Of a DNA stretch of 46,374 nucleotides, positions 35,388 through 40,056 are shown in pieces. The notes beneath the pieces are model-generated. The model did not search any database. It saw only the letters and a list, made by a program, of their open reading frames with translations, and was not told the origin of the DNA. The DNA comes from an uncultured Selenomonadales bacterium (GTDB lineage Bacteria; Bacillota; Negativicutes; Acidaminococcales; Acidaminococcaceae): the NCBI GenBank assembly GCA_900316935.1, contig ONEW01000016.1, positions 1-46,374 of the forward strand. Reading direction: 5' to 3'. The first letter of the stretch is position 1, and every line of letters starts with the position of its first letter. A program made the position numbers and the translations under genes.

Positions 35388-35894
35388 ATGCTGAAGACCG
35401 TATTAGCCTTGAATTTCCGTCCCGACCGCCTGCAGGCCCTGCGCCGCCTGTGCATGATCCTGAAGGTCAACTGCCGCGAAGTGCCCCTGGAGTCCTTCAA
35501 CGACTCCATCGGGTTCCTGGCCGGCGCGAAGGACTGCCCCCGGGAGGCCGTCAACCCGGCGGAAAACGCCGAGGACAAGCTGACAGGCGCCCTGGAGGAG
35601 GCAGCCGCCAAGGCGGGGGAGGACCCGGAAAGTGTAAAAAAAGCCGCCCTGCAGCTGCTGCTGGATGCGGCACAAAAAGAAATGACCGTCCTCTGCGGGT
35701 TCGACATGCACCTGTTGAACCGCTTCCTGGCAGCCGTCAAGAAGAGCCCCCTGCAGGACATTGAGCTCAAAGCCATGCTGACGCCCACCAACAGCCGCTG
35801 GAGCGCCCGGCACCTGCTGCAGGAACTGGCGGCCGAACATGTCTATATGCACCAGAAGGAAAACGGTGCGGCCAAAGGGTTGCACAACAAGTAA
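35388..35894 (+). CDS. DUF3783-type small protein
   Basis: 168 residues, cytoplasmic, unknown function. The C-terminal part (TVLCGFDMHLLNRFLAAVKKS...LKAMLTPTNSRWSARHLLQEL) matches the short DUF3783 domain, which occurs in clostridial and negativicute proteins. Residues ~55-90 are a charged, probably flexible linker. The ATG at 35388 is favoured; a TTG at 35364 would add eight residues. It follows purA by 47 bases and is probably co-transcribed. Confidence 0.72.
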   Translation: MLKTVLALNFRPDRLQALRRLCMILKVNCREVPLESFNDSIGFLAGAKDCPREAVNPAENAEDKLTGALEEAAAKAGEDPESVKKAALQLLLDAAQKEMTVLCGFDMHLLNRFLAAVKKSPLQDIELKAMLTPTNSRWSARHLLQELAAEHVYMHQKENGAAKGLHNK

Positions 35895-35944
35895 AAAAAG
35901 ACAAAACGAAAGCCCGCGCCATCAATCTTTCATGTCGCGGGCTT
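35893..35944 (-). terminator. Terminator of the minus-strand RNA (also convergent with DUF3783)
   Basis: AAGCCCGCG/CGCGGGCTT (35910-35918 with 35936-35944), 17-base loop. On the minus strand it runs into TTTCGTTTTGTCTTTTTTT, a strong U-tract. On the plus strand the tail is CCTAATG, so it is mainly a minus-strand terminator, with possible use by the convergent gene. Confidence 0.8.
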
Positions 35945-36297
35945 CCTAATGACTTGCTTCTGACTTCTGCATTGGACTGTACCCCATTTCCTTAATATTC
36001 TTTCAAGAACATCACTTTCATGAGGATCAACCTTCTTTTCGTAGATCTACTACTCATTTCTTGCTTTGCAGTACCCTATTCAGTTTTGAGATGCTTCGGT
36101 TGACTTACTGCTTTCAACTACTTTTCCAAACTGCTTCAAGGGTTTCTGAAGAACTGCTTACGGTTGCTTACGTTTTCGGTGGAACCACTTCCTTTCCTGT
36201 TTCCCGAGAAATATCGTCCCTTCCTTCACCAGGTTTTTCCGGGTGATGGGCTTTCGCCCGGCCTCCGGAACTTTCTTTAGGCGATCTCTCTCTTTTC
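35895..36297 (-). ncRNA. Candidate structured non-coding RNA (~400 nt)
   Basis: No protein gene fits this 750-base gap. On the minus strand a strong promoter (next entry) and the terminator above bracket ~400 bases. Visible helices: TTCCGG/CCGGAA (about 36269-36264 with 36242-36237) enclosing GGGC-GAAA-GCCC; a 6-bp GCAGTA/TACTGC pair across 36114-36065; CTTCA/TGAAG around 36150; the palindrome GTAGATCTAC at 36041-36050. I do not recognise it as RNase P, tmRNA, 6S or SRP RNA: their conserved strings are absent. CAAAACTGAATAG resembles a motif of Firmicutes rRNA spacers, so an rRNA-spacer relic is an alternative. Short ORFs inside lack ribosome sites. Confidence 0.5.
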
Positions 36298-36303
36298 ACC
36301 TTT

Positions 36304-36332
36304 ATAGTACTATGGATTTACAAATAAATCAA
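36304..36332 (-). promoter_or_regulatory. Strong minus-strand promoter with A/T-rich upstream element
   Basis: TTGATT (36332-36327) and TACTAT (36309-36304), 17-bp spacer. The preceding ~40 bases (36333-36375) are almost entirely A/T, like an UP element of stable-RNA promoters. Predicted start near 36297. Confidence 0.65.
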
Positions 36333-36499
36333 GTGAAATCTATGTAAAATTTGTAACATGTAAATTTTTGTAAACAAATTGTACGGCAATAGAGGACAAT
36401 AAGAAAAACGATTTCGCGGAAAAAGTGTGGATTTCACGGCAGCGTTTTCGTGAGTATTCCGCTTTTTGCAGGAAACGGGAGGACGGTGGGCAACAAAAC

Positions 36500-36588
36500 G
36501 TTAACAGTCCACTGGAAATGGTTGACATAAATCCGCACGGGACGTATAATAGGGATTGCAGGTTAACTGTAAAATCACAATGGTTAAT
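36500..36588 (+). promoter_or_regulatory. bioY promoter with two BirA-like operators
   Basis: TTGACA (36522-36527) and TATAAT (36545-36550), 17-bp spacer: a near-consensus promoter. Two bipartite sites share one spacing: GTTAAC-N15-GTTGAC (36500-36526) overlaps the -35, and GTTAAC-N15-GTTAAT (36562-36588) lies just after the start site. This agrees with the known Firmicutes BirA site, two GTTAAC-type halves about 15 bp apart. Biotin-bound BirA would block both. A GC-rich palindrome (36598-36613) follows in the leader. Confidence 0.75.
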
Positions 36589-36641
36589 GAAGTTTCCGGC
36601 GGCCCGCGGGCCGCATATCCTTGGATTAGGAGATGTTTTTC

Positions 36642-37208
36642 ATGGAACAGACGTCGCGCGTGCCGAGAGTAGAAAGCACTCTGGCGAAAACCCGTACCCT
36701 GACGAAAATGGCCCTGTGTGTGGCCCTGCTGGCGATTTCCGCCTATATTTCCTTCCCGCTGCCGTTTACTCCAGCTATGGTGACGGCCCTGACGATCGTG
36801 GTCAATCTGACCGCCTTCATCCTGAAACCCCACGAAGCCTTTCTGGTGCTGCTGGCCTGGATGATCCTCGGCGCCGCGGGCGTGCCCGTCTTCGTCGGCG
36901 GCACGGCGGGCCTGGGCAAGCTGGTCGGCCCCACGGGCGGGTTCGTCGTATCCTTCCTGGTGGCAGGCTGGCTCATGAGCAAGCTGCGCGGCAACACGAA
37001 CTCCTTCAAACGGTTCGTGTTCCTCGGCATCGTTGTCGGCATGCCGGTCATCTACATCGGCGGCTGCATCTCCATGTACCTGGTGGCGCACATGGGCGTC
37101 TGGGCGACCCTGGTGGCGGCCGTGTTCCCCTTCCTCCTCGGCGATGTCGTGAAAGTGCTGATTGCCGCCTTCCTGGCTACGCGCATCAACAGGCTGGTCA
37201 AGGACTGA
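36642..37208 (+). CDS. bioY: Biotin transporter substrate-binding component
   Basis: 188 residues with five or six transmembrane helices, the S component of an ECF-type biotin transporter. PLPFTPAMVTALTIVVNLTA and the Gly-rich GGTAGLGKLVGPTGGF loop are BioY family features. The ATG at 36642 has TTAGGAG nine bases upstream; an ATG at 36633 overlaps that site. Energy-coupling genes are not here. The BirA-like operators support the call independently. Confidence 0.92.
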   Translation: MEQTSRVPRVESTLAKTRTLTKMALCVALLAISAYISFPLPFTPAMVTALTIVVNLTAFILKPHEAFLVLLAWMILGAAGVPVFVGGTAGLGKLVGPTGGFVVSFLVAGWLMSKLRGNTNSFKRFVFLGIVVGMPVIYIGGCISMYLVAHMGVWATLVAAVFPFLLGDVVKVLIAAFLATRINRLVKD

Positions 37209-39980: not shown

Positions 39981-40056
39981 GGTCCATTAGCTCAGTTGGC
40001 AGAGCACCTGACTTTTAATCAGGGTGTCCCCAGTTCGAGTCTGGGATGGATCACCA
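39981..40056 (+). tRNA. tRNA-Lys (anticodon UUU)
   Basis: 76 bases with encoded CCA. Acceptor GGTCCAT/ATGGATC (one G-T), D-arm with AGCTCAGTTGGCAGAGC, anticodon stem CCTGA/TCAGG with loop CTTTTAA (anticodon TTT), and T-arm CCCAG-TTCGAGT-CTGGG. Own promoter and terminator. Its wobble U34 is a classic target of MnmA, which is encoded in the window. Confidence 0.97.

What the first reader, a model, noticed from the sequence alone, without database searches (positions are those of the whole stretch)
35895..36297. Stand-alone structured RNA candidate with its own stable-RNA-type promoter
The largest gene-free gap holds a minus-strand TTGATT-N17-TACTAT promoter with an A/T-rich upstream element, ~400 bases with several nested helices (including a GAAA-capped GGGC/GCCC hairpin inside TTCCGG/CCGGAA), and a terminator with a long U-tract. 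GC drops compared with flanking genes. The conserved strings of RNase P, tmRNA, SRP and 6S RNA are not seen. It could be a new structured RNA or a relic of an rRNA spacer (CAAAACTGAATAG resembles one).
Basis: partly seen in the sequence, partly recalled or inferred. Interest (0 to 1): 0.72.

Follow-up and report, generated by a model that had tools for sequence, protein, structure and literature searches.

The report
Genus-wide small RNA with mini-ORF
A Selenomonadales-type bacterium and eleven related species carry, in a gap between genes, a conserved element that is predicted to be made as a free-standing small RNA and that likely also encodes a peptide of only eight or nine amino acids; it matches no Rfam family and its targets are unknown.

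Summary
On the minus strand, about 36303 to 35895, lie a promoter, a folded 5' domain and a terminator, with no Rfam match. Homologues occur in 12 of 14 genomes of the genus (long form 384-454 nt in 3, short form 218-223 nt in 9). In 286 other genomes of the class a model gives only five weak matches, which I take for chance. The model, trained on short forms alone, recovers the window's RNA at its predicted start. Between species both ends of the RNA are about 92% identical where the adjacent gene is 75%, and the 5' helices covary. The rRNA-spacer idea is not supported, 6S RNA sits elsewhere and CsrA was not found. Best reading: a new, regulated, stand-alone sRNA family, likely dual-function (RNA plus peptide). 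Transcription, translation and targets are untested; a search for shared targets found none.

The parts
36343..36358 (-). Dyad TGTTACAAATTTTACA (TGTnA-N6-TnACA), putative regulator site, 10 nt upstream of the -35 box
   Evidence: Same dyad at the same spacing in 12 of 12 homologues; the stricter pattern TGTNACANNNTTNACA occurs 4 times in the whole genome, its control 0 times
36304..36332 (-). Promoter TTGATT-N17-TACTAT
   Evidence: Read; aligned promoter region in relatives; not listed by the scanner
35895..36303 (-). Predicted small RNA (start about 36299-36297), long form
   Evidence: Homologues in 12 of 14 genus genomes; model R1 matches 36299-36173
36206..36292 (-). 5' domain: helix P0 (GAGAGA-AUCG-CC with GGG-CGAU-UUUCUC) enclosing hairpin P1 (36270-36237)
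   Evidence: Fold; 9 of 12 modelled pairs change on both sides across 12 distinct rows (alignment fitted to the model)
36173..36197 (-). Conserved core GGAAAGGAAGUGGUUCCACCGAAA (small hairpin GGAA-GUGG-UUCC, then NCCGAAA)
   Evidence: Alignments A2 and A4; fold
36052..36167 (-). Variable middle, contains the rRNA-spacer-like string
   Evidence: 65 of 85 identical with 28 gapped positions against G009
35902..36051 (-). Conserved 3' block: a domain seen in the long form only, then small ORF and terminator
   Evidence: 132 of 143 identical to G009, 142 of 150 to G008
35946..35972 (-). Small ORF ATG CAG AAG TCA GAA GCA AGT CAT TAG (MQKSEASH); an in-frame ATG at 35987 would extend it to MGYSPMQKSEASH
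   Evidence: In frame with start and stop in 12 of 12 homologues; permutation p 0.018 on 5 of the 6 distinct short-form ORFs
35895..35944 (-). Terminator hairpin and interrupted U-tract
   Evidence: Read; equivalent hairpin in the short forms has 3 pairs changed on both sides; not listed

Best explanation
The minus strand at about 36303-35895 carries an intergenic element conserved in 12 of 14 genomes of its genus that is predicted to be transcribed as a regulated, stand-alone small RNA and that likely works as a dual-function RNA, its 5' part acting as RNA and its 3' end encoding an 8-9-residue peptide. Shown: the conservation, the covarying 5' helices, a dyad at fixed spacing upstream of the promoter in 12 of 12, a small ORF in frame in 12 of 12 directly before the terminator, and, in the window, a downstream neighbour on the opposite strand, so no gene that it could lead into. 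Inferred: a regulator of unknown identity binds the dyad and controls transcription; ribosomes load on the AAAGGAG-type site of the short form, presented in a hairpin loop just before the start codon, and make the peptide; the 5' domain with the core GGAGUGGUUCCNCCGAAA acts in trans, most likely by pairing with ribosome-binding sites of mRNAs. This last step is the weakest: no shared target was found and the core is partly paired in predictions.
For: Homologues in 12 of 14 genus genomes; a model built from short forms only finds the long forms at the right start (window 30.9 bits, E 5e-5 in 138 kb). RNA ends 92% identical to G009 against 75% for the neighbouring gene. Covariation: 9 of 12 pairs in the 5' domain, 5 of 38 in the short form. 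Promoter dyad in 12 of 12. Small ORF in 12 of 12 with ATG 8, TTG 3, GTG 1; G003 and G012 keep L-S-R although each of these three codons differs; permutation p 0.018. Short-form ribosome site predicted at least half open in 8 of 9. CsrA 0 of 14 and 6S RNA elsewhere in 13 of 14 remove two other readings. Dual-function RNAs under CRP or Anr control are known (passages in PMC8672173 and PMC8395346).
Against: No expression data. Without the terminator most forms fold no better than shuffles. The coding test is modest: p 0.19 for silent changes alone, and frame 1 (12 silent, 28 not) is close to frame 0 (11, 19); the TG of the start codon and the stop codon also sit in predicted helices, which could explain their conservation. 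In the long form, the window's own, the ribosome site is weak and predicted mostly paired (0.24). UUCCNCC of the core is predicted 5-47% unpaired. Of 30 of 80 matches to the core's complement inspected, no shared ribosome-site target was seen. In the slid control one shift also gives 4 pairs changed on both sides. The regulator is unknown: CRP/FNR-type proteins are found only in the 3 long-form genomes, Rex in none of 14.
Confidence: 0.5

Rival explanations
1. A purely non-coding regulatory sRNA that acts by base pairing or by binding a protein; the small ORF is a by-product of conserved hairpins.
For: The start and stop codons lie in predicted helices; the coding test is modest; in the long form the ribosome site is weak.
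Against: In frame in 12 of 12 with three different start codons, a 3-nt deletion in G007 that keeps the frame, and L-S-R kept by other codons in G012.
Confidence: 0.3
2. A short mRNA whose only product is the peptide; the 5' part is an untranslated leader that controls its translation.
For: Strong ribosome site in a hairpin loop in the short form, ORF directly before the terminator.
Against: The most conserved parts are the 5' domain and core, far from the ORF; a leader of some 150 to 330 nt for 8-9 codons would be unusual (recalled).
Confidence: 0.13
3. A CsrB-type sponge that titrates the protein CsrA through AGGA motifs.
For: AGGA is over-represented in two of four RNAs tested (G003 p 0.016, G001 p 0.002; G009 p 0.058; window p 0.38).
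Against: CsrA domain PF02599 in 0 of 14 genus genomes, while the control genomes ring.
Confidence: 0.02
4. A cis-acting leader or attenuator, or a relic of an rRNA spacer or of a known housekeeping RNA.
Against: In the window the next gene is on the opposite strand; what follows differs between species. No Rfam match; 6S RNA is elsewhere; the string is in the variable middle.
Confidence: 0.05

Closest known systems
VcdRP of Vibrio cholerae and AzuCR of E. coli (PMC8672173, passages read)
   Same: Stand-alone small RNA with its own regulated promoter that also carries a small ORF; both are described there as controlled by CRP, whose site (recalled) has the TGTnA-N6-TnACA shape seen here.
   Different: No sequence relation was tested; VcdP has 29 residues, here 8-9. 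Their base pairing and translation were shown by experiment; here neither is. The short-form genomes show no CRP/FNR-type protein.
PhrS of Pseudomonas aeruginosa (PMC8395346, passages read)
   Same: sRNA that needs the anaerobic regulator Anr and encodes a conserved small peptide.
   Different: 37-residue peptide, known target uof/pqsR; no target is known here and no sequence relation was tested.
RoxS/RsaE-type sRNAs of Gram-positive bacteria (recalled)
   Same: A C-rich core that could pair with ribosome sites of mRNAs.
   Different: No Rfam match to any family; the core here is partly paired; Rex, which is recalled as controlling RoxS, was not found.
6S RNA (RF00013)
   Same: Stand-alone stable-RNA-type gene.
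   Different: The genome has its own 6S RNA on contig C20, and 13 of 14 genus genomes have one; no match here.

Membership tests
Dual-function sRNA (kind) | Stand-alone transcript with own promoter and terminator | tested here: inconclusive
   Both conserved in sequence; the consensus scanner listed neither in the window; no transcript data
Dual-function sRNA (kind) | Translated small ORF | tested here: inconclusive
   In frame in 12 of 12; permutation p 0.018, silent changes alone p 0.19
Dual-function sRNA (kind) | Regulates other mRNAs by base pairing | tested here: inconclusive
   Core complement: 80 matches in 14 genomes against 31 for the control, 13 of the 80 being the RNA itself; 30 inspected, no shared ribosome-site target
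CsrB-type sponge | CsrA present in the genome | tested here: not met
   0 of 14, control genomes ring
6S RNA | Match to RF00013 | tested here: not met
   No match here; 6S at G000:C20:18524-18706
Any other Rfam family (RNase P, tmRNA, SRP, rRNA, riboswitches) | Match at or above the family's gathering score | tested here: not met
   Only tRNA-Lys elsewhere in the window; two matches far below gathering score in the permissive search; none in eight short-form loci
CRP/FNR- or Rex-controlled sRNA | The regulator family is present wherever the dyad is | tested here: not met
   PF00027 in 3 of 14 genomes, exactly the long-form three; Rex domain PF06971 in 0 of 14
Cis-acting leader or attenuator | A same-strand gene directly downstream, conserved between species | tested here: not met
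   Opposite-strand gene in the window; no common follower in the flanks read

The most novel reading that the evidence does not exclude
A dual-function RNA whose product is a peptide of only 8-9 residues and whose stop codon sits on the terminator, so that translating ribosomes tune the RNA's own termination; one branch of the genus nearly doubled the RNA by gaining a conserved domain between core and ORF while keeping promoter, core and peptide.
Probability: 0.2. Interest if true: 0.62.

Novelty: new member of a known kind. Interest (0 to 1): 0.42.

Why it matters
Paper searches for small RNAs of Negativicutes, Succiniclasticum, Acidaminococcaceae and the rumen listed no description of this RNA. 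If the tiny ORF is translated, it would push down the size of peptides known from regulatory RNAs (29 and 37 residues in the two examples I read about) and give a conserved case, in 12 genomes, for asking what such a peptide does and who reads the promoter dyad.

Tried and rejected
CsrA sponge, 6S RNA, Rfam families, rRNA spacer, and CRP/FNR or Rex as the single owner of the dyad were rejected as told above. In one search the one match, a c-di-AMP riboswitch in L005, lies away from the short match there.

The exact core pattern matched in 8 of 300 genomes: G000, G008, G009, G002 (twice) and four genomes of another genus. The two extra places whose sequence I looked at (G002:C103, G050) are inside coding genes read the other way (NlpC-like by eye), so I take these for chance; G089, G098 and G105 were not looked at. 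The 31-base match G008:C11 I also take for chance. Five weak model matches outside the genus, E 7e-4 to 0.053, each have a stop-free stretch of 80 codons or more over their centre, so I take them for chance too.

A 44-codon frame across the window's 5' domain is not kept in G009, which has frame-shifting gaps (read by eye). An alternative helix between GGAUACUUC and GAGUGGUUCC holds in most short forms, but I could not write it for the long forms, so no switch is claimed. In the target look 9 of 30 matches had a start codon of a frame of 60 codons or more nearby; two that begin similar frames (G013, G004) turned out on reading to be inside homologous coding sequence, and one, before a helicase-like gene in G001, looks like a ribosome site.

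The genus name Succiniclasticum is my guess from recall. Two viral-contig scans for the core found nothing. Searches read bioY in a wrong frame and found nothing; one search corrected this.

Full report
The window lies in a 1.95-Mb genome of 46 contigs. The gap in question sits between a DUF3783 gene (35388-35894), which follows purB and purA, and bioY (36642-37208). Both neighbours are on the plus strand; the candidate is on the minus strand, so it faces the DUF3783 gene and has bioY behind it.

Observation. The promoter TTGATT-17-TACTAT, the hairpins and the terminator are as described, although the consensus scanner listed neither promoter nor terminator. The RNA folds with z -3.2 against shuffles. 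With the terminator cut off, z falls to -1.7 in the window, -3.0 and -0.5 in the other long forms, and to between -1.7 and +0.7 in the nine short forms. Stability alone would not make the case. Rfam gives nothing at gathering score except tRNA-Lys elsewhere, and two poor matches in a permissive search of the gap.

Relatives. A DNA search of 61 genomes found long relatives in G008 and G009 and a 58-base match in G002, besides two 31-base matches that I take for chance. The G002 match lies in the same place, between bioY-like and DUF3783-like frames, as does one in G003 seen while reading the gaps. Searching 61 genomes with the G003 copy then found 9 with a short form, all in the genus. Together 12 of 14 genomes of the genus have the RNA. 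In G010 the DUF3783 gene lies 1.5 kb from a contig end on the side where the RNA would be, so it may be missing from the assembly; for G013 I have no explanation. G005 has a second copy cut off by a contig end. Where DUF3783 and the RNA share a contig (9 of 12) they face each other, at 1.5-1.9 kb in G004, G006, G011 and G012 (coordinates).

A covariance model built from the 5' part of the nine short forms recovers the window, G008 and G009 at the expected start. In 300 genomes of the class it finds the 12 genus genomes and five weak others, which overlap stop-free stretches. In that search the three long forms score only E 5e-4 to 3e-3, near the best of the five others (7e-4); what sets the long forms apart is the shared locus, promoter dyad and ORF.

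Constraint. Between the window and G009 the 5' block is 121/132 and the 3' block 132/143 identical, while the neighbouring gene is 380/504 and the middle of the RNA 65/85 with 28 gapped positions. Against G008 the contrast is absent: 129/136 and 142/150 against 470/504. In the 5' domain 9 of 12 modelled pairs change on both sides across 12 distinct rows, against a mean of 3.6 in shuffles (0 of 500 reach it) and 1-3 in slid controls; this alignment was fitted to the model, which leans the count in its favour. On the plain alignment of short forms 5 of 38 pairs do so, two in P1 and three in the terminator, against 2.1 in shuffles and 0-4 in slid controls. Helix P0 hardly varies within the short form.

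Control region. A dyad TGTnA-N6-TnACA stands exactly 10 nt before the -35 box in 12 of 12. It has the shape of a CRP/FNR-type site (recalled), but the domain PF00027 was found only in the three long-form genomes and the Rex domain in none of 14. The regulator is unknown. In this genome a stricter form of the dyad occurs four times; the other three places gave no clear regulon.

Small ORF. Just before the terminator 12 of 12 have a start codon (ATG 8, TTG 3, GTG 1) and a stop in frame. The short forms read MQRLSRFNS, (TTG)QRLSRFNR in three, MYISDFNC, MQRLSDFEC in two and MQRLSDFES in two; the long forms MQKSEASH, MQKLEASH and (GTG)QKLEASH. Short forms carry an AAAGGAG-like site about 8 nt ahead, predicted at least half open in 8 of 9 (0.50-0.89; 0.42 in G001). 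In long forms the site is weak, and an in-frame ATG five codons upstream is an alternative start. A permutation test on 5 of the 6 distinct short ORFs (G007 left out because of its 3-nt deletion) gives p 0.018 for silent minus other differences and 0.19 for silent alone; frame 1 scores 12 silent to 28 other, frame 0 11 to 19, frame 2 0 to 40. Translation is likely but not proven.

Function. With no CsrA found and 6S RNA elsewhere, the best remaining model is a trans-acting RNA that also carries a peptide, as in VcdRP and AzuCR (PMC8672173, passages read) and PhrS (PMC8395346, passages read). The core UGGUUCCNCCGAAA, nearly invariant, can pair with GGNGGAAC-type ribosome sites. Eleven bases of its complement occur 80 times in the 14 genomes, 13 of these in the RNA gene itself, against 31 for the reversed control pattern. 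Of 30 of these 80 inspected, 9 have a start codon nearby; one, in G001, looks like a ribosome site, two similar ones are inside homologous coding sequence, and no shared target was seen. The core is also partly paired in predictions. I hold this step at low confidence.

Literature. Searches for small RNAs in Negativicutes, Succiniclasticum, Acidaminococcaceae and the rumen listed nothing on this RNA; I saw listings there, at most 8 to 15 rows each, not the papers. In PMC6429828 and PMC8632094 I read passages only; they name other Negativicutes motifs (SLH, gltD, ldh2, and in Veillonella ilvD and potE).

Verdict: a conserved candidate small-RNA gene without an Rfam family, restricted in these data to one genus, with a likely translated mini-ORF. 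It is a new member of a known kind with an unusually small coding part.

Noticed in passing
window 36500-36650: The bioY promoter is a perfect TTGACA-N17-TATAAT (36522-36550) flanked by GTTAAC-type repeats that look like BirA operators (recalled).
   Followed up: no
L052 and L056 (G005:C276 and G005:C75): Genome G005 holds two copies of the RNA, the second cut off by its contig end: a duplication or strain mixture.
   Followed up: partly
G000, G008, G009 against the other 11 genus genomes: CRP/FNR-type proteins (PF00027) were found in exactly the three genomes with the long form of the RNA.
   Followed up: no
L049 flank (G004), also G012 and G006: In these three genomes a frame beginning MRLFIAINLSDA (2',3'-cyclic phosphodiesterase-like by eye) lies about 100 nt after the RNA's terminator on the same strand; other species lack it there.
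   Followed up: no
window 39981-40056 (+): tRNA-Lys (TTT), the only Rfam match in the window.
   Followed up: no
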